From positions 542,596-606,595 of the forward strand of contig ML213514.1 in NCBI GenBank assembly GCA_004369045.1: DNA of 64,000 nt. The letters run 5' to 3'. Position 1 is the stretch's first letter, and every line of letters starts with the position of its first letter. The translations under genes and the position numbers were made by a program. This document shows positions 837-39,264 of this stretch, piece by piece. The notes below the pieces were generated by a model that worked only from the letters and a program-made list of their open reading frames with translations, did no database searches and was not told where the DNA came from. Source of the stretch: Heliocybe sulcata. Taxonomy: Eukaryota > Basidiomycota > Agaricomycetes > Gloeophyllales > Gloeophyllaceae.

Positions 837-1075
837 GCCAATGTCAGCAGATGCTCGGGGACGTCGATTTGTTTCAGCTGATGCGAAGAGCTGATGCGAA
901 GAGAGTGCTATCGATATAGTTCTGGCGCAAACCGGTTCAACTGAACGTGAGAAAGAAATGGCGTTCTGTTTGTCCCACACGCGTACGGCGGTGTTGTGGC
1001 TGTAACCTGGACCTGTTGGCACTCACTGCTTACTCTTCCTTGGCAAGTCGCTTTCACCGTCAATCTTGAAATATC
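837..1075. promoter_or_regulatory. Short divergent promoter between XLF and FHA/G-patch genes
   Basis: Only 239 bp separate the two start codons (836 on minus, 1076 on plus), so both genes must share this segment for initiation and 5' UTRs. The stretch contains a near-direct repeat of CAGCTGATGCGAAGAG around 875-905. No clear TATA box was seen. Confidence 0.6.
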
Positions 1076-2218
1076 ATGCCAGAATATGTTTACGATCCCG
1101 CATATGAATATCCTGGCGAGACCGAACTCTTAGCTTCTGCCCTTCCGAGACAGACTTCCGAGATACGCCCCGTCCTGCGGTTGGTTATATTACGGAGCAC
1201 GGTTCTACCGAAGAAACAGGCTGCTGCCGTGCTCGACGGCTACGAAGAGGGTCAGATAGGACGTGATGCTGCGCCAGCAGGTAGCGAAACCCCTCGTATC
1301 CGTCTTAAAGAGATGGAAGTCTCGAAATATCACGCCAATGTCTACTGGGACTCCGAGCGGCGACAATGGGCTGTAGTGGATATGGGGTCAAAACATGGCA
1401 CGTTTCTCAGGTCCTCATCTTCCTCTTTCGCTTCATCTTCTCTCGCGGGGCCGGAAGAGAGAGGGATCAGGCTGTCGCCGCCTCGTGTCGCGAGTATGCC
1501 CAAAGCATTACATCACCTGGATCAGCTGAGCATAGGGGGCACGACGTTCTTGGTACATCTCCATGAAGACGGGCTTCCCTGTGCCGACTGTGCTTTGCAT
1601 GAACGTGCGGAGGTTCCCCTGTTTGCCGTACCTAAGAAACGAAAGCGAGAGGAGAGTTCAGTTCCTGTGAACGAGCCCGGGTTACAACCAAAGCAGCAAC
1701 ATGACCCTAGGAAAGCTCTCTCTTCGCTGAAACGGAGCCTTTTGCACAGGCACGACGATTCCACCTCTTCATCAAGGTTTTCTACCCCTTCCGCTCCGTA
1801 CGTCGACCGATCCGCGCGTCGTCGAGCACTTCATGCCACTTCTGCCTCAGAGACTCCAGGAGTTATGCCTCCTCCCCTCCAGAAAGCCGCTTCAGCAGCA
1901 CAATCTGCTGTCGTCGATCCGAATCCCAATCCACTTCCGGAGCCCGTCTCCGCGCCTCCGACTCCTCTCTCAAGCAGTAACATCGGACACAAATTGCTTA
2001 TGAAACAGGGCTGGCAGCCGGGTACCTCCCTCGGGCAGGCAGAGTCTGAAGGAACAGCCCTCATCGAGCCCCTTCAAGTTGCAATCAGCAAGAATAGAGC
2101 CGGGCTGGGGATGGCGGCAGTGGAGGGCCAGAGTACCCCCAATGAGACCGGCGTAGACTGGAGAGACACAGCTAGGCGACGACGGTTCGAGGACCTGAGG
2201 GCAGGAGACCGAAGATAG
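1076..2218 (+). CDS. FHA and G-patch domain protein (AGGF1-like)
   Basis: Single-exon gene of 380 codons. The first half holds an FHA domain at about residues 35-165. Its signature residues are visible: a GR turn, SKYHANVYW, then DMGSKHGTFL and a late LSIGGTTF strand interrupted by a serine-rich insert. A basic nuclear-localisation-like patch (KKRKR) lies near residue 187. A low-complexity linker follows, then a G-patch at about residues 300-345 (HKLLMKQGWQPGTSLG, ending NRAGLGM). FHA domains bind phosphothreonine and G-patches activate DEAH RNA helicases. This order matches human AGGF1 and fungal relatives of uncertain role, so a nuclear RNA or splicing role is inferred. The lack of introns is unusual for this locus. 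Confidence 0.85.
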   Translation: MPEYVYDPAYEYPGETELLASALPRQTSEIRPVLRLVILRSTVLPKKQAAAVLDGYEEGQIGRDAAPAGSETPRIRLKEMEVSKYHANVYWDSERRQWAVVDMGSKHGTFLRSSSSSFASSSLAGPEERGIRLSPPRVASMPKALHHLDQLSIGGTTFLVHLHEDGLPCADCALHERAEVPLFAVPKKRKREESSVPVNEPGLQPKQQHDPRKALSSLKRSLLHRHDDSTSSSRFSTPSAPYVDRSARRRALHATSASETPGVMPPPLQKAASAAQSAVVDPNPNPLPEPVSAPPTPLSSSNIGHKLLMKQGWQPGTSLGQAESEGTALIEPLQVAISKNRAGLGMAAVEGQSTPNETGVDWRDTARRRRFEDLRAGDRR

Positions 2219-2949: not shown

Positions 2950-4753
2950 TCAGTGCTCAAGCTCCATCTCCTCTGCGACCTCGTCGGCATGCGCCTGGGC
3001 CCACTGGCGCGCATATATTGACGCCTTCAAGAACTTCTTGTCCGCATACTTCTTGAAGACGTGCTGCTGCTCGAACTCCTCGTCGTTGAGTTTATCGATG
3101 AGAAGGCGGAAGCCAGGCAACAGGTGCTCCTCGGTGCAACCAGAATGGAACACAAAACCCTCGCTCTGAAGTGAGGAACAACAGGACACGTGTTAGCATG
3201 CGGTATAACAATCAAAGGGATCCATGATATATAAGACGATGGCAACTTACCCAGTCGGTGTTTAACATCTTTCTGGCCGTGTACATGCCCACAGCAGCAA
3301 CCAGACTTGGCTTCACTCGGACGAACCGGTAGTCCAACAGCGTCACCTCCGTCAGGAACTTACTCAGCGTCCGGGTCTGGATATCATAGTCATCCGCCTT
3401 GCTGATCCTCCGCATCCAGCTGTAGGGAGAGCAGTACTGCGAGATCCTGAACTCGAGAGTCTGCAGGACTATCCGTTCGCCCTTGAGAATCTCCTCTTTC
3501 GAGTAGCCGTTCTCGGTCATGAAGACAAACTCGTCGACGGAAGGAGCTAGGATCTCCTCGTACTTGGATGCGATGAACATGGCCGTGACTCCGACGAGCT
3601 GCAGCTTTACACGAGATACCACTCGCTTGGTGAGGAACCGGTCGACGATGTTGATGGCGATCCAAAGGGTTTCAGGGAGCATGTGGTATCTCCGGTGCAC
3701 TTGCAGCAGCCAGTCCACGAGCAGTTGCCGCATATCCCAGGTGATCTCAGTCTGACTGGACATATAGTCCACACCAGGCATCATCTCCTCCTGAACAGCC
3801 GGAGATTAATCAACTGTCATTCAACAATGTATGCCAAGCAAGCGTACCTCGAGTTCGGCCATATACTCAAAGATATCGTCCGAGTACTCCGAAACCATCG
3901 TGGTGTCGAAGATGTCGACCTCATCCTCGTAAGTGGCCTTGACGGTCTCAAGCTCCTGCTTGTAACGTTTGCCTTGCTCGGTGGAAACTTCAGGCCAGAC
4001 ACGAGCGGCGTTCGGAGGTGCCACCTCCTCCTGTTCCTCAAGTTCATCGACATCGCTGTCAACTTCACCGACCACTGCCTCGGCCTCCTCCTCTCCGGTT
4101 CCGAGGCTCTCGCAATGAGCCGATACTGGACGCGAGGGAGCTCGCTCGCGCTCGACATCCATCTCGTCCTCCTCACTGTCGTCGGCGGCGGGTGGTGACG
4201 CATCATGCTGTAGATTAGATTGTGACGGAATGGGCTCCGAAGGAGTGACAAGTGATGAAGGTCGGAGAGCCTTTCCCGAATCAGCGCGTGCATTGACGGG
4301 CTCGGCTTGGGGTGGGACAGGTTGTGCTTTCGCGGGCAACAGCGTTGCATGTCGCGCGGGACCCTTGAGAGTAACTGAAATGCGCTTGGCATTTGCGATG
4401 ATCTCCTTGCCTTTCGAAGGGGCCTTGCCACCCTACACGACGTGCCCGATGAGTACCCAGGTGGCAATAACGTTTACGACCCGGCACATACCTTTGCGTT
4501 CAGGGCGCCAGTCGTAAGTTCATTCAGCACCGGGCGTTGCACACCGTTCTTGCCAATAGCCGAAGGGAGGCGACTGGCACCGGCAGCTACCTTGCCGTCA
4601 GATGGCTTCCTCGCGTGTTTGCTCGTTGCATTCTCATCGGCGAGCTTTGAACGATGCAGTCCAAGGCGGTTTCGCAGGGGGAACTGCTAAGTGTGAGCGA
4701 ATCAGCCGCGTATAATACAGTCGGACACGTACACGTTGAGTGTTGTTGGCCAT
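2950..4753 (-). CDS. G2/mitotic-specific B-type cyclin
   Basis: Five exons (4753-4733, 4686-4492, 4432-3848, 3790-3251, 3165-2950), all phase 0, give 518 residues. The tiny first exon (MANNTQR) joins QFPLRNRLGLHRSKL, which contains an RxxL destruction-box-like sequence as expected for APC/C-driven proteolysis. A long acidic linker follows. The cyclin box begins near residue 275 with MRQLLVDWLLQVHRRY and continues with the FIASKYEEI helix. The second cyclin fold ends in a short acidic tail. B-type cyclins activate Cdk1 for mitotic entry. Length and order match fungal Clb/Cdc13/NimE proteins. Upstream MCB/SCB-like elements suggest periodic transcription. Start chosen because exon 1 has a clean GTACGT donor and gives the canonical short N-terminus. 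Confidence 0.93.
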
Positions 4754-12635: not shown

Positions 12636-15073
12636 CTAGCAACTAAACTGGCTGTTACCTGAAGGAATGTTCAGTAAGGAATCTCGAGAGGTACCAGTGT
12701 ACACGTACCAGGGGTATAGAACCAGAACGCGACTGCGAGAATGAGGTAGAGACCTGTGCACAGCGTCAGTACTCTCTGGAAAGACAATATAGCATCCACG
12801 TACACATCAGAATCATGCCTTCCAACCAATTTGACTTTCCATCCGCGACAACATAGTTAACGGTGAGTACTGCCAAGAACAAAGCGATGGCCTCGAAAGG
12901 ATCGAACAACAGTGACAGCGGCTTTCCAATGATCCATCCAAGAGTCACTATGAAGGGAATAACGAACAACGCGATTTGCTGCGAACGCACTGTCAGAAGT
13001 GAACACAAAGCAGATGCATATCGACTTACAATACTCGAACCGACGGCAACGCCGATACTAAGAGCGAGCTTGTCCTTGACGGAGACGGTGACGGCCGTAA
13101 CGTGCTCTGCGGCATTGCCGACGATGGGCAGCAAGATCATACCGACGAATTCCTTGCTAATGCCGCCGCTCTCCGTCAGCCCGTCGATGGAGCTAACGAG
13201 CCATTCGGCGGTAAGGGCAACAAACTGATAACAACAATCTTCAGCCACGAAGAGGGCCGGGCCGGGCCTAGGGAAAGGGACGTACGACTGTAACAACAAC
13301 AAGCAGGACAATGCTCATAAGGACGTTCAACTGCGGCGTCTCCGCCTCCTCCTCTTCCTGGTCTACACCGCTTTCGACGTCCCCGTTCGGCGACGCGACA
13401 TCTGTGCGGTCTGTAAGCGTGTCGGTGCCATTCATGTTGTTTGTGCCGACAGCGTTGTCATCGATTCCGCCGCCCGCCACGACAGGATTCCTTTTCCTGA
13501 GAGGGTTAGAGATACGCGGGAAAATGTGCCCGCCCTTCTCGCGTTGCTGGTAACGAGATGAGGCAATTATGTCCCCGCCAGCGTCATCGTACATGGTCTT
13601 GTGCGAGAACAGCTGGAAGATGATGTAGGATACATAGACTGCAATTACCGTTCAGTATGTGATCCTGCCGCCAGATCCTTGAGATAGAAGTACTGACTGA
13701 AAAGCAAAATGATAGCAGTCTAATAAAAAGCCATCACGTTAACTCGTATACAATAAATTGAATACGCGCTCGCTTACCCCGTGACTGACGCTAAGAATCT
13801 CCTTGTTTTCCTCAGAAACGGTTACCGACGAACTATCGGTGTACTGGAAGGCCGCAGGTAGAAGCACAGCAATAACGCTCAAGATCAAAAGCGAAGAATT
13901 GACTTGCGCAGCGCCTGATCATGATTTGAACACATCCATATCAGTTCCATCACGCCATCACAACTTTAACCAGAGAAACCAACGTACTTGTACCGAAACC
14001 CTGTTCCGAGAACCGAGTACCCCCCGCGAAGAAACACATCCCGAGGACCAATACTGGGACCGATGATCAGTTACCGACGTCATCGGACAGACTGGGATTC
14101 AAGTACTCACGGAGGTTACTGAGGATGGATCCCACCACTAGGAATTGAGATGCGAATTAGATGGGCTGTGGGGGCGGTGATGTCAACCAAGGCAGACTGC
14201 ACGTACGCGATGATTGCACGACCGTCAGTTCGCATTGGACAAGAGCAATGATCTAACGATAGTGAGTTGACAAATGACCGAAACTGACATAGCAGAGACA
14301 ACATACGGCAACAATCAGTTCGACGCTTATCAGTGTGGAAGAAGAAAGGATAGTCAGTCAAGACAGTAGGCATCGTGACGGGAACAAGACGCACGCGTTA
14401 CCGAGAGTCGCGTTGAGCAATCCAGCTAGTGTTTGACCGACCCTCAACGACATTTCTTCCGTGGCATATGCCAGTAGCTATGATGCAATGCAAGTCAGAA
14501 TTGCAGCCCACGTAACCGGCTTGCGCCACACGAACCTGGGCGAGGGGAATAATAGCCAGAAATGAGACTATATGCACCTTAGTCTACAGGGCCGACCAGA
14601 GAAAACGGTAACACTCACATACGAACACCAGTGTGTTGTTTAGGTGCGCAAAATGGAAGGCCCACTAAGGCTCCAATATTAGGTATAATGCACAAAATGG
14701 GACTGCGCCGCCAACTCACAGAAAGTGGGATGAAAACAAGCAAAACGTTGAGCCCTAGTGATCGTTTGCATCAGCACATGCGACGCTGAATACCTGTAAC
14801 GGGTGGCTCACATGAACAAGTAACAATGGCTCTGAGACTCTGCATATTCGTCGGTTCGGCCCCAAGCGGCCGTTCTGGCTGCATCTTCTGGGAGAGCACT
14901 GTCGTACACCGGCGTATGAGGCTCTTAGGGCCAGTGACTGGGTCTGCGACGGTGGACGCAGTTGACTGCCGTTTGCTGGCTCGCCGACTATTCCGGCGTT
15001 CATTGGGGCTACCGTTCTCCACAGGCAGCGCGGGCTCCTGCACGCGGACACGATCGGGTTCAGAGGTAGACAT
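12636..15073 (-). CDS. VCX1: Vacuolar Ca2+/H+ exchanger (CAX family, VCX1-like)
   Basis: 16 exons (15073-14812, 14754-14720, 14664-14619, 14567-14536, 14477-14395, 14325-14307, 14252-14207, 14137-14111, 14053-13988, 13914-13778, 13719-13698, 13638-13286, 13224-13030, 12978-12804, 12753-12709, 12658-12636) give 521 residues with every junction in phase. A cytosolic N-terminus precedes eleven-helix CAX topology. The first repeat carries GNAVELIVA and the second GNAAEHVTAV, the paired ion-binding motifs of the family. An acidic loop (EEEEAE) separates the halves. Known members move Ca2+ into the vacuole using the proton gradient. The 19-nt exon 6 encodes the core of the first motif. A GAGGCTG word at 15450 resembles the core of a calcineurin-response element, which is weak evidence. 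Confidence 0.95.
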
Positions 15074-33157: not shown

Positions 33158-36100
33158 ATGCTACCTTACGCGCATACACCCACATCCGCTAATCCAGCTT
33201 CCTCCTCCTCCGACCGGTCGTACTTTCATTTGATCATGCAGACCCCGCCCCAATTAGAAAGGTTGGACACTGGGCTTTCTAGTTATTCGTGTAATTCGAC
33301 GTCGCAACTTGTTATGGACGCCGGGAAGGCGACCGGCGACGGTGCGCCGCGTCAGCAGCGAGGGGAGCGGTCTTGCTGGCGCTGGCCTTCTCGCTCGCGG
33401 CGCAGAGGGACGCAGAGTGGTTTTGGGTTGGAGAAGGGAGGAGCAGCGCAGGTCAAGAGTCGTCCTGCACGACGGCCCGCTAAGCATCCATGGGACGGCT
33501 GGAAAGTTATTATCTTGGACTCATGTGAGTCCGACGCACATGTTCTGTGTCGCAGGCTAATAACTGCGTACAGGGCTTAATCTCCTGCTGTTCTTAATTC
33601 CCGTCTCGGTGCGTAAGACTCGTTGTGGCCGATAGCAGACCTCTCATGTTGCATATATAGTGGATTCTCGAGTTTACCCTACTGGGATCCAGCGCCCTAA
33701 TATTCATCTGTAAGCTGTCGTTTGACCATTTTAGCGTGCTTGCTCAACAATTGCCGCAACCAGTCTGTGTGCTTTCCATGATCCCCCTTGTTAAGGTAAG
33801 CACTATCCGGTTACCTTGGTGTCATCGTTCACAAGGAATTCAGTTACACGACCTTGCGACTCGTGAACTCGCCATCCGCATCGGAGGCTCCAAAACAGGC
33901 CTGTTGAACGCGAGCATGGTACGATCCAGCACAGTATTGCTATACAGAAGCTGCTAATACTTTGCTATGTTATTTTAGGCTAATATGTAAGAAATAAATC
34001 ACCTAAGTCCGACCTATGTAATTGATCAATCCCTAAAATGACAGCGTAGAACTGGTATTTGCGGTATGGAGGCTCGTTTTAGATTGCTGAGACGACCGGA
34101 CTGACAAGGTCTTAATTGCGCGCATAGATCAGCGCTCTTCGGAAGTGCGAGCTGCGTGTCGTGCAATCCTCCAGTAAGCATTTACTCTTATTTCCGCTAC
34201 CGTCTCCGTCTGACGGACTCGTTCTCCGTAAAGTGGTGGGATCCATACTTAGCAAGCTCCGTGCGTGCATATATGCATCTCCTGCCTCAAGTAACTCTAG
34301 GCTTAACTTGATACTTGGCATGCAGTCCTCGTCCTTGGGATGTGCTTCTTTGCCGGAGGTACCCGGTTCCAAGAGCAAGGTTTCGACGCTAGTAAGCATC
34401 AATCTCATTTCACGGCATGACCTGCAGCCCTGATTCTGATTCTTGCCACTAACTCATGTTGCCTTTGAAATTGATGGCAATTCATAGCCGCGACAAATCT
34501 GCAATCCTCTTTACTGATCATCAGTGTCAGTGCCGTCCTCCTCCCATGCGCCTATCATTTTACGATCGCGCGTGTGAGTGAGGAAGTGTTCGATGAGCAG
34601 AAGGACGATCTACTGAAGATGAGCCACGGGGTACGTCTTAATACGCTTCGGCCTTTCCTGTTTGTCCTAACTTGGACGTGCCGAAGGTTTCTATCATCCT
34701 CCTCTTGAGTAAGTAGTCTTTTTTATATTCCGATGTGGCCTGGTCTGACCGTCATCTATCAGTCTACTGCGCGTACCTCCTGTTCCAATTCTACTCCCAC
34801 ACGCACCTTTACCAGGACAAGCACACCAAGCCGAGCACACCGCACCCTTACGTCGCAGCGACCATGTCCAAATCATCCGCCAACCTGAAGTCTAGCTCCA
34901 CTGTAGATGTCACCGCGAAAGACACCCAGACTCAGTCCCCCCGAGGGGGGAACAGGGAGTCGTCGAACTGGACAGACTCGACGTATACCGTCGGTGGGGG
35001 ATCCGTGCGCTCGCGGAGGTCGTTCACGATGTCCAGGGCGGACCCTCTGACTGAAGACAGCTTCAACATCGGTGGGCAAGACAGTGCGTCCACGATGGCC
35101 AAGGATAGCACTGTCGCCTCCAGAGGCGCGGTGCCGGCTCCGGATGTGGACCCCACGATTAGGCTGGTGCAGTCGTACTACGCAAATGAGTCAAAGGAGA
35201 CTGTTTTAGTGGTACGGGATAGACATCACCGCCGACTATCCGCTTTTGTTCTGACCAGTATGGTTTGTCTTTGCAGCTGAACGAAAAGGCTGAAGAACAG
35301 CGCATTGAGCGTGTCGTTGTCGAGAGCAGACCCGGGACACGACTCGAGTTCATCCCATCGAACCAGAGCCAGCCGACCGTATCCGTGCCTGAACAGCATG
35401 ACCTCCGGCAACACGAGAAGCATCCGCAGCTGAGTTGGCTCATGACAATGGCTCTGTTGACGGCTGTGACGGTGGTAAGTGTCTCCCTCCCATGTACCGT
35501 ATTCAGTCCCTGTGGCTAAAGGTGGACTATTGATATAGATGGTTTCTGTAAATGCTGACCAGCTGGTTGAGTCTATGGATGGCATCTCTACGCATATCGA
35601 CAAGACGTGGATTGCGCTTGTGTTGCTGCCGGCGGTTGGGTCCATAGCCGGTGCGTAACTGGATACGAATACTTCAACTGCAACAGCTCATTTTACACTT
35701 ATCCTTAGAATGCGTTACGGCGATCAACACGTCGGTAAAGGACGAGTTGACATTCAGCATCAGTGTGGCTGTCGGGTCTACTGTCGTAAGTCGATTCTTC
35801 TCCATAGCTGTATCGGTATTGACGTCGGGTGGACGCTAGCAAACCGCATTATTCGTAATCCCGTAAGCGATGGTCGTTGGTACACGAGTGCGATTGGTCT
35901 AACCTGCACTCTAGCTTTGTCGTCCTTCTGGGATGGGTCCTGAACAAGCCGCTCGCTCTGTTGTTCGACCCATTCGAGTCTGTGGTGTTGTATATCTCCG
36001 GTATATGCTGACCTTTCCTTCTATCCATATGACTATATGCTAACATGAATCGTGTACAGTGCATACTATGACGTCTGTTGTTCAGGACGGGAAGTCTAAC

Positions 36101-36315
36101 TGGCTGGAAGGTGCCATTCTCATCTGTGAGTAACATAGCCTTGTCGAGCGACTGTAACAGCAATTTAATGTGGCGCAGGTCTATACGCTATCATCGCCGT
36201 GGCTTTCTGGTTCTATCCTGGTGAGTAATACGGACACGCTGTGGGTCTCTGAGACTAACCTGGAGCCATGTTCGCAGCCTCGGATGTCTCGAACACGCTG
36301 GCGGCCTGCACATAA
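33158..36315 (+). CDS. Divergent CAX-type cation exchanger paralogue, 659 aa
   Basis: 21 exons (367, 35, 49, 32, 75, 8, 19, 46, 27, 66, 143, 22, 449, 198, 112, 77, 23, 86, 66, 42 and 38 nt) give 659 residues in unbroken phase. Order and helices mirror the VCX1 gene of this window, with nearly all intron positions shared. There is a longer basic N-terminus and a central hydrophilic loop of roughly 220 residues. The two signature repeats differ: ANIVELVFA replaces GNAVELIVA, and GSIAECVTA replaces GNAAEHVTA. Both glutamates remain but the second-repeat Asn and His are gone. Transport of Ca2+ or another cation across an internal membrane is likely, with altered specificity or regulation inferred. 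Start 33158 is the first ATG in frame. An 8-nt exon lies at 33979-33986. Confidence 0.88.
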
Positions 36316-36881: not shown

Positions 36882-39264
36882 CTAGAGGTAGTACCGATCC
36901 CCTAGTTTCCAACACTTCAGCGTTGACGGAATTGAAGGAACAGGAGCCGTACCGATTTGGCCCATACCGGGCTCAATAACCCACACCTTCCTCCTATGAA
37001 TATCGTTCTCATCCGTGGCATCCTCAATCCAACATTCCCTCAAATGTGCATCGATAGCTCCCGTAACAATCCGAACTTCAGGAAAAGCCCTCCTCAGGGT
37101 AGATACGCCACCGTCGTCAGCAACCAGAAAAGTAACGAAGACGATGTGATCCTGAAGAACGCCATGATCCAGCAGAACACGAATGGCCATGAACGCAGAA
37201 GCCGCGGTACCGATCTACCACCGGGAACGTCCTAATCAGCAGACAAACAAAAGTGCCAAGATAAGCCATGTCACCTACCTGAGCGTCCAGTAAAAATACC
37301 CAGGTGTCCTTCGCCTTTCCTCGGTCTCGAACGCATTTCGGAAGCATGACGTGCAGGAGCAATGGCTCGGATGTTGCTGGATCAGTTTGCACTAATAGGG
37401 ATCCGAGTAGTACATCATTGATCACCCGTTGAAGACCGCGCTCCAGTGGGCCGCCTCTATGTAAGTGAATCATAGGAATGAACCCGCGGTGACGACGACT
37501 TACGATCGTTGAATAGTCACGCCGCAGACGCACTGCAGAAAGAGTCGTCAGAACAGATATTGCAGCAGAAGTAGTCACCTGGCCTACATGGGCTTCGAGC
37601 TCTTTACCCGGCGCCTCAACGCCGCAAGGCGTCTCCACCGACTTGGGCCGGAAGGGGAGCAGTTCGACCGCAGCTTCAATTAATAGCGTCGCCAATCTAT
37701 CAACGAAGAAGATGAAATCCTGTTTGGCAGTTGTCTCGTCTCGCAGAATTGTGTAGATTCCCTGAGTAAAGCCAAGGACGTGGTACTTCAATTTCGGAAA
37801 CAATAACGTCGAAATCATCCTACCTTGAGCTGCGCGGTCTGGGGAAGCAGAATCAAATTGTGATGACGTTGCTCCTTCGAATTTGAGGACGTTTCCGTCG
37901 GGACAGGAGCGTCATTTGGACGTCTCGGGACCATATTGGGCCTAAAATGTCGTGCACGTTCCCGGAGCTGTCTGCGTATGTGGGTCGATATCAACTCGAT
38001 AGCGACGTGATTATCAGAACCGGGGACTATCTGCGCAGGACATGAGAATGCACAGGTTAGTCGTGCATAGCCGGTTGATTTTGGTACACATACAATATCG
38101 GCATAGCGAGACGTGGGTAGCACGAAGTTGTCATAGGCCGGTTTGACATAACGCAGATATCTACGGCCTTTTAATGACCCAGCAAGACCCGTATGCGAAG
38201 GAACGGCTCACTGATCCAAAACACCTTCGACGCTTCTGCCACGTTCTTTCACGTCTCTTCGGATACGACGCGCGAGCATAAGGTCCGAGTCGCACTGAAC
38301 GAATATCTGTCGGAAACAATTGACGGTGAGATTTTTGCTTTCTTACACACGTTTAGTGCACACCTTCAGATCGTAAACGGCACGGAGGGCCGGGTCATGT
38401 AGGGCCATTATACCTTCCGCTGTCACCATGCCCGATCAGCACAAATGACATCAGCTAACACAGAATACTGGGGCACCGATTATAATAGCAGCGCCGTACA
38501 GATACTGCGTTTCATCCAATCGCTGGTGCTCCGTGAACGAGTACACGGGTACATTTGTCTGTCGACACTTCTTCAAATCTACGAGGCACTACCCTCACAA
38601 CGGAGTTTCAAGTCAAGTTAAGATCCAGTGGAAGCATGTCTCTATGCATAGACACGTACCTGTGCGAACATGGGCATGTCTAGCGCGTCCGGGTGGTCGA
38701 AATCTATCTTATTGTCCATTGCCAGCGCCACCTCCTCTGGCGTATGACGTTTATAGAAACTATCCTACCAAGATACCCGGTCTGACATGAGTGACGAGGG
38801 TGGGGATGATGATACGCACCTGCGACAGGATAACTACGGTCGGAATAGACCCAAGGGACCGGACAATCTGGCGAGCGACATGGGTCTGGGCAGGCGATGA
38901 GCAAAAGCCCATGACTAGTCCGTATACATGTGCCGACCTTTCCACTCGCAGATCCGCCTGGTACGACAGCAGTGAGCAAAGTGCAAGACTCGGGAACGTG
39001 GCAAAGTCATGATAGTACCCGCTACCCCGATGACGAACGCGTCAGTTATCGGCTCTCCGTCTTGCCCGTACCTGCGTAATCGCCTTCATTATGCAGTATT
39101 TCAGAGCAGGGCTTGGAAGTGATTCACCAGGGTGGGCGACCATGGGATTTTAGCACAGTATTCTTCAGAGCTTGTATGGTCGTACTAGTGCTGCTCGGCA
39201 GGCTACCGAAATTACCACCGTCGAGGGGGACATTGGGCATACCGTCTTCCGGAGTATCGCTCAT
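36882..39264 (-). CDS. URK1: Uridine kinase with UPRT-like C-terminal domain
   Basis: Fifteen exons (39264-39128, 39071-39019, 38957-38938, 38885-38820, 38764-38660, 38588-38477, 38419-38364, 38306-38212, 38160-38094, 38030-37824, 37761-37588, 37532-37504, 37456-37279, 37214-36953, 36901-36882) encode 526 residues. The kinase domain has the Walker [14 protein letters not shown], then [21 protein letters not shown] and EGIMALHD. The phosphoribosyltransferase-like domain has [23 protein letters not shown] and [13 protein letters not shown] at the end. Urk1 phosphorylates uridine and cytidine in pyrimidine salvage. The loop that binds PRPP in true UPRTs reads LLDAQIGTAAS, as in kinase-fused relatives, so UPRT activity is doubtful. 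The intron after exon 3 uses a GTCGGC donor. Confidence 0.95.

What the first reader, a model, noticed from the sequence alone, without database searches (positions are those of the whole stretch)
33158..36315. A CAX exchanger that has rewritten both ion-binding signatures
The VCX1-type gene in this window keeps GNAVELIVA and GNAAEHVTA. Its neighbour has ANIVELVFA and GSIAECVTA: both acidic residues persist, but the second-repeat Asn and His are replaced by Ser and Cys and the first Gly by Ala. It also carries a loop of about 220 residues. The frame is open through 21 exons, so the protein appears maintained rather than dead. This suggests a transporter with a different ion, a regulatory sensor, or an inactive partner of VCX1.
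Basis: partly seen in the sequence, partly recalled or inferred. Interest (0 to 1): 0.7.

Follow-up and report, generated by a model that had tools for sequence, protein, structure and literature searches.

The report
Calcium exchanger copy with rewired core
A fungus carries a spare copy of the gene for its vacuolar calcium/proton exchanger in which several highly conserved ion-site residues have changed, one of them to a positively charged lysine, while the two essential glutamates and the reading frame are kept, so it may now move a different ion or act as a partner protein.

Summary
Window 33158-36315 (+) assembles into 21 exons, 659 aa, no stop, with ANIVELVFA and GSIAECVTA. None of the alternative splicings enumerated restores GNxxE. 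Corrections: the loop is 188 aa, not about 220, and the canonical gene (15073-12636, -) lies 18 kb away.

The change is deeper than reported. In Vcx1 numbering, TM3 Asn133 is Lys (Asn in 80 of 80 prokaryotic CAX sampled and 5 of 5 canonical references), Glu83 is Arg, Ala104 and Ala300 are Ile, and the stretch before TM7 goes from net -10 to -1. Glu106, Glu302, Asn103, Ser129, Ser132, Ser325 and Gln328 are kept. Neutral evolution of the branch is rejected (ω=1, 2ΔlnL 32.9).

It belongs to the VCX1 lineage: 14 of 14 comparable introns of the canonical paralogue are shared, and a second divergent relative lies on contig 27. Best reading: a maintained CAX paralogue, unlikely to be an efficient Ca2+/H+ exchanger, more likely a cation/H+ antiporter of altered selectivity; a regulatory partner or a divalent-metal exchanger are the main rivals. 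No fungal collection was available, so the orthologue test was not possible. Function is inference.

The parts
33158..36315 (+). Divergent CAX paralogue ('CAX2' in this report), 21 exons, 659 aa
   Evidence: Spliced model; Pfam Na_Ca_ex 5.7e-31; best PDB match 4k1c Vcx1 3.7e-76
33862..33864 (+). Codon CGT: Arg at Vcx1 Glu83 (M1)
   Evidence: Glu in 80 of 80 prokaryotic CAX sampled and 5 of 5 canonical references
33979..34063 (+). First ion-binding signature ANIVELVFA, split over exons 6 and 7 (intron 33987-34044): G102A, A104I; N103 and E106 kept
34254..34256 (+). Codon AAG: Lys at Vcx1 Asn133 (YfkE N99) in TM3
   Evidence: Asn in 80 of 80 and 5 of 5
34798..35426 (+). 188-residue loop between TM6 and TM7 (intron 35212-35276); last 30 residues net charge -1 against -10 in the canonical paralogue
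35638..35713 (+). Second signature GSIAEC, split over exons 15 and 16 (intron 35651-35708): N299S, A300I, H303C; E302 kept
12636..15073 (-). Canonical VCX1-type paralogue ('VCXn'), 16 exons, 521 aa, used for comparison

Best explanation
This is a duplicated VCX1-type antiporter that has been kept by selection and whose central cation site has been re-charged. Shown: membership of the VCX1 lineage, an intact gene, and loss of conserved site residues. Inferred: the two carrier glutamates (E106, E302) still alternate between the two sides of the membrane, but the new Lys133, beside the lost Asn299 and His303, sits near E302 and supplies part of the positive charge that Ca2+ supplied. The site then carries a net charge nearer -1, which would disfavour Ca2+ and favour exchange of H+ against another, probably monovalent, cation. 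Arg83 and the loss of the acidic stretch would remove the cytosolic Ca2+-concentrating element. So it most likely is a cation/H+ antiporter that no longer handles Ca2+ well.
For: Lineage: 14 of 14 comparable VCXn introns (15 in all, one outside the aligned core) are in CAX2 at the same place and phase, and 15 of the 15 C27 introns seen; 57% aa identity to VCXn over 326 codons. Maintenance: ω=1 on the CAX2 branch rejected, 2ΔlnL 32.9; of 500 neutral runs on the 326-codon core, 3 reached 63% identity without a stop, and of another 500, 12 reached 75% without a stop. Site: E83, G102, N133, N299 and H303 are each invariant in 80 of 80 sampled prokaryotic CAX and 5 of 5 canonical references and all changed here, while N103, E106, S129, E302, S325 and Q328, equally invariant, are kept. 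Precedent: a Lys put into the NCLX pocket (S468K) strongly suppressed Ca2+ transport (PMC12571890, passages); YfkE N99 and H256 lie beside E72 and E255 (PMC10227063, passages); VCX1 E83 and the acidic helix are reported, second hand, to serve Ca2+ concentration (PMC7869505, passages). Vnx1 exchanges vacuolar H+ for Na+ or K+ (PMC6539216, passages; its placing among CAX proteins is recalled); the type II-like gene of this genome (C16) has also lost E83, N133 and H303 and reads GSIIE and PNTTEF.
Against: No transport, expression or structure data. Clustering of losses at the ion site is weak: 5 of 11 site columns against 7 of 48 others, p 0.036 one-sided, with a site list I merged from two papers after seeing the Lys; without N133 p 0.11, VCX1 list alone 0.20, YfkE list alone 0.07. 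The YfkE paper notes that the polar shell residues, N99 and H256 among them, have no direct contact with Ca2+ in the VCX1 structure and proposes a role in phosphate binding, so their loss may bear on phosphate rather than on the cation. The tested lysine precedent is at another residue. A review states that Ca2+ transport is conserved in all CAX genes studied (PMC4982074, passages). Synonymous sites are saturated and branch lengths sit at their bound, so ω itself is not well estimated.
Confidence: 0.4

Rival explanations
1. Non-transporting or weakly transporting partner: it forms mixed oligomers with the canonical exchanger VCXn and tunes it, the long loop and N-terminus being the regulatory parts.
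For: VCX1 and CAX_Af are reported as dimers and YfkE as a trimer (PMC7869505, passages); Arabidopsis CAX1 and CAX3 form heteromers, and the co-expressed pair differs in Ca2+ Km and in inhibition by other ions from deregulated CAX1 (PMC5853972, one section read). A Lys in the pocket suppresses transport in NCLX. The loop is twice as long as in VCXn and rich in Ser/Thr, 45 of 188 against 12 of 90.
Against: Both carrier glutamates and much of the polar site are kept although 43% of the core residues differ from VCXn, which a non-transporter would not need. No interaction data.
Confidence: 0.25
2. Still a divalent metal/H+ exchanger, for Ca2+ at lower affinity or for Mn2+, Zn2+ or Cd2+, the Cys near the site and His residues at the loop ends favouring softer metals.
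For: Alanine at the G102, N133, N299 and H303 equivalents in YfkE changes kinetics without abrogating transport; CAX1 variants exist with more metal and less Ca2+ transport in yeast (PMC4982074, passages); 4 His in the first 20 loop residues and 3 in the last 30, against 1 and 0 in VCXn.
Against: A lysine next to the two glutamates should disfavour a divalent ion (inference). His is not striking over the whole loop, 7 of 188 against 2 of 90. The same review calls trace-metal transport generally not a trait of non-plant CAX.
Confidence: 0.25
3. A gene early in decay, relaxed after duplication, with an intact frame by chance.
For: Long branch, 0.74 against 0.15 for VCXn, and 1.17 for C27. 12 of 59 highly conserved columns lost, 7 of them outside the site list, such as F288W and K314E.
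Against: ω=1 on the branch rejected, 2ΔlnL 32.9; all 20 introns keep GT and AG; only 3 of 500 neutral runs to 63% identity stayed free of stops. Recent relaxation after long selection is not excluded.
Confidence: 0.08

Closest known systems
Saccharomyces cerevisiae Vcx1 (PDB 4k1c), type I CAX
   Same: Sequence homologue over both halves, 3.7e-76; both carrier Glu, N103, S129, S132, S325 and Q328 kept
   Different: E83R, G102A, A104I, N133K, N299S, A300I, H303C; acidic stretch lost and 188-residue loop
YfkE of Bacillus subtilis (PDB 4kjr)
   Same: E72, E255, N69, S278 and Q281 equivalents kept
   Different: G68, N99, N252 and H256 equivalents are Ala, Lys, Ser and Cys; alanine mutants of all four were made there
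Type II CAX, Vnx1-like (C16 gene of the same genome, YccF plus Na_Ca_ex)
   Same: E83, A104, N133, A300 and H303 are changed in both; c-2 GSIAE here resembles c-1 GSIIE there
   Different: No YccF hit here; C16 changes N103 and keeps N299, the reverse of CAX2; its TM3 residue is Gly, not Lys
C27 paralogue of the same genome (L042)
   Same: Grouped with CAX2 in the tree (ultrafast bootstrap 78, not strong); all 15 introns seen are shared; TM3 Asn also lost (His)
   Different: Keeps GNxxE in both repeats and His303 (GNAIEF, GNVPEH)

Membership tests
CAX family of the CaCA superfamily (type I, VCX1 lineage) | Two Na_Ca_ex repeats, over the Pfam cut-off | tested here: met
   PF01699, 108 bits against 24.9, two stretches
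CAX family of the CaCA superfamily (type I, VCX1 lineage) | Closest to Vcx1 among solved structures, both halves aligned | tested here: met
   4k1c 3.7e-76, two stretches
CAX family of the CaCA superfamily (type I, VCX1 lineage) | Descent from the same intron-bearing ancestor as VCXn | tested here: met
   14 of 14 comparable introns shared; tree of 16 sequences, 8 of the 80 prokaryotic loci used
CAX family of the CaCA superfamily (type I, VCX1 lineage) | GNxxE in both alpha repeats | tested here: not met
   ANIVE and GSIAE.
CAX family of the CaCA superfamily (type I, VCX1 lineage) | Carrier glutamates E106 and E302 | tested here: met
CAX family of the CaCA superfamily (type I, VCX1 lineage) | Acidic helix between TM6 and TM7 | tested here: not met
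   By charge only: net -1 over the last 30 loop residues, VCXn -10; first 20 loop residues +1 against -1. Helicity not tested
CAX family of the CaCA superfamily (type I, VCX1 lineage) | Ca2+/H+ exchange | not testable with these tools
   Needs a transport assay
Type II CAX (Vnx1-like) | N-terminal YccF domain (recalled as typical of Vnx1) | tested here: not met
   Only Na_Ca_ex found in CAX2; the C16 gene has YccF at 5.2e-16

The most novel reading that the evidence does not exclude
A fungal CAX subfamily in which a lysine tethered in TM3 stands in for part of the transported Ca2+ charge, turning a two-glutamate Ca2+/H+ exchanger into a monovalent cation/H+ antiporter (or a proton-only device), a route to changed coupling within type I CAX proteins that is separate from type II Vnx1.
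Probability: 0.25. Interest if true: 0.65.

Novelty: new variant of a known kind. Interest (0 to 1): 0.42.

Why it matters
If true, the paralogue is a natural experiment on which residues set ion choice and proton coupling in CAX antiporters: the carrier glutamates are held while the surrounding conserved shell, the histidine and the Ca2+-concentrating acidic element are replaced. It gives named residues to test, above all Lys133, and a within-genome series of three paralogues, from canonical VCXn to C27 and CAX2.

Tried and rejected
Alternative splicing restoring the motifs: not found in 1564 and 294 in-frame combinations of 0-2 introns; more introns or other exons were not enumerated. Sequencing error: rejected for the set, open for K133 alone. 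Recent tandem duplicate: rejected, 57% aa identity and third positions 36% identical. The first codon-model run went to its bounds and was discarded; a second run with another optimiser was used. A CAX2 ω different from the other branches was not supported (2ΔlnL 0.76). Calcineurin docking: the pattern search printed one PxIxIT-like string with a wrong position and a VSVP at aa 481 in CAX2; the script was faulty there and I draw nothing from it. Orthologues: in viral contigs none of 4 and none of 36 pattern matches encoded a relative. Papers: seven searches were answered, listing 20 of 41, 19 of 20, 12 of 223, 15 of 318, 12 of 59, 10 of 483 and 0 of 0 papers; no listed title or abstract start describes this variant, but most hits were not seen. 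The C11 hit was under the Pfam cut-off (18.9 bits) and aligned poorly, so I dropped it; C20 shows GNGSPD, which I recall as NCX/NCKX-like, and was not used. In C16, 5 of the 29 columns counted as not kept are gaps of the typed fragment.

Full report
The gene. Starting from the raw sequence I assembled 33158-36315 (+) by hand from splice sites: 21 exons, 1,980 nt, 659 aa, no internal stop, all 20 introns GT-AG and 48-96 nt long. The motifs are ANIVELVFA (exons 6-7) and GSIAECVTA (exons 15-16). The canonical gene on the minus strand, 15073-12636, has 16 exons, 521 aa, GNAVELIVA and GNAAEHVTA. The two lie 18 kb apart on opposite strands. Enumerating 0-2 GT-AG introns over exons 5-8 (1564 combinations) and over exons 15-16 (294) gave no GNxxE.

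Family. Pfam gives Na_Ca_ex at 5.7e-31 as the only family. Among solved structures the best match by sequence is yeast Vcx1, 4k1c, at 3.7e-76, then Arabidopsis CAX1 and YfkE. So this is a CAX protein of the VCX1 kind by descent.

The genome. The window lies in a held genome of 31.6 Mb, contig 12. Searches with the protein, with Pfam PF01699 and with the canonical paralogue (lower bounds by the tool's own note) show further CaCA genes: C3 (L041, canonical apart from ANAAEH in c-2), C27 (L042, divergent), C16 (L043) and C20 (GNGSPD, recalled as NCX/NCKX-like). C16 carries a YccF domain (5.2e-16) upstream of a Na_Ca_ex domain, which I recall as the architecture of Vnx1.

Descent. Within the comparable core, 14 of 14 VCXn introns are in CAX2 at the same place and phase, the 15 C27 introns seen are all in CAX2, and CAX2 and C27 share three that VCXn lacks; C3 shares only 2 with each. 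A tree of 16 sequences (CAX2, seven references and 8 of the 80 prokaryotic loci) puts CAX2 with C27 (ultrafast bootstrap 78, not strong) beside VCXn, with branch lengths 0.74, 1.17 and 0.15. So one copy stayed slow and canonical and two diverged.

What changed at the ion site. I aligned CAX2 and seven reference proteins with 80 prokaryotic CAX proteins; Vcx1 numbers come from aligning 4k1c and anchoring on E106 and H303. 59 columns are at least 95% one residue in the prokaryotes and identical in all five canonical references; CAX2 keeps 47 of 59, C27 44 and C16 30 (five of the C16 misses are gaps). The 12 that CAX2 lost are A75V, E83R, G102A, A104I, I108V, N133K, F288W, I292V, N299S, A300I, H303C and K314E. 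N133 is Asn in 80 of 80 prokaryotic proteins and 5 of 5 references, Lys here, His in C27, Gly in C16. Kept are N103, E106, S129, S132, E302, S325 and Q328. The stretch before TM7, where VCXn has EEEEAE, has gone from net -10 to -1 over 30 residues.

What the literature says of these residues. In VCX1, as reported second hand, E106 and E302 are crucial for Ca2+ transport, E83 with E230 and D234 of the acidic helix serve Ca2+ concentration, and S129, S132, N299 and H303 hold M3 to M7 (PMC7869505, passages). In YfkE, E72 and E255 are essential, while alanine at G68, N69, N99, N252, H256 or Q281 changes kinetics without abrogating transport; in the authors' model N99 and N252 were restrained to 4.2 angstrom (PMC10227063, passages). 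The same paper says that these polar residues do not touch Ca2+ in the VCX1 structure and proposes that they bind phosphate, which tells against reading every change as a change of cation. In NCLX, an H+/Ca2+ exchanger of the same superfamily, a lysine placed in the pocket (S468K) strongly suppressed Ca2+ transport (PMC12571890, passages). Lys133 is at another place but, judging from YfkE, in the same neighbourhood; no structure of CAX2 was predicted.

Is it maintained? A branch codon model on 326 codons of four genes rejects ω=1 on the CAX2 branch (2ΔlnL 32.9, p about 1e-8) and finds no difference from the other branches (2ΔlnL 0.76). Third positions are saturated (36% identical to VCXn) and several branch lengths sit at their bound, so the value of ω means little. 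Neutral decay of the VCXn core left no stop in 3 of 500 runs to 63% identity and in 12 of 500 runs to 75%. Long-term purifying selection is supported; recent relaxation is not excluded.

Is the change aimed at the site? The losses hit 5 of 11 literature site columns against 7 of 48 others (p 0.036, one-sided), but the list was merged from two papers after I had seen the lysine; with N133 left out p is 0.11, with the VCX1 list alone 0.20, with the YfkE list alone 0.07, and with the alpha-repeat cores as a whole (6 of 17 against 6 of 42) 0.08. The same test on C27 gave 3 of 11 against 12 of 48, p 0.57. I treat this as suggestive only. The quality of the changes, a Glu-to-Arg, an Asn-to-Lys and the loss of the histidine beside E302, is the better argument, and it is chemical inference.

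Mechanism. I commit to an alternating-access cation/H+ antiporter with poor Ca2+ handling, in which Lys133 offsets part of the charge of E106 and E302 (0.4). The main rivals are a regulatory partner of VCXn, with CAX1-CAX3 heteromers as precedent (PMC5853972, one section read), and a divalent metal exchanger of changed preference (0.25 each). A decaying gene is unlikely (0.08).

Limits. No fungal sequence collection is held, so the orthologue test was not possible; two viral scans found no relative and the genome scan, whose best 80 of 554 relatives I saw, gave prokaryotes only. Seven word searches of the paper library showed no listed paper on this variant; the listings were capped, and this is not evidence that none exists.

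Noticed in passing
L042 (own genome C27:195500-199500): A second divergent CAX paralogue, grouped with CAX2, with TM3 Asn133 replaced by His, S129A, E83D and GNVPEH in the second repeat; longer branch than CAX2, VCXn or C3.
   Followed up: partly
L043 (own genome C16:162800-166500): Type II CAX-like gene with an N-terminal YccF domain; repeats read GSIIE and PNTTEF.
   Followed up: partly
L041 (own genome C3:239500-243500): Canonical CAX with c-2 ANAAEH, Gly298 changed to Ala; of its 12 introns seen only 2 are shared with the window's two genes.
   Followed up: partly
window 37117-37911 (-): Uracil phosphoribosyltransferase domain (Pfam 7.2e-15) in an open frame shortly downstream of CAX2, on the other strand.
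   Followed up: no
window 1070-2218 (+) and 3212-3805 (-): An open frame with FHA and G-patch domains, and one with cyclin N and C domains.
   Followed up: no
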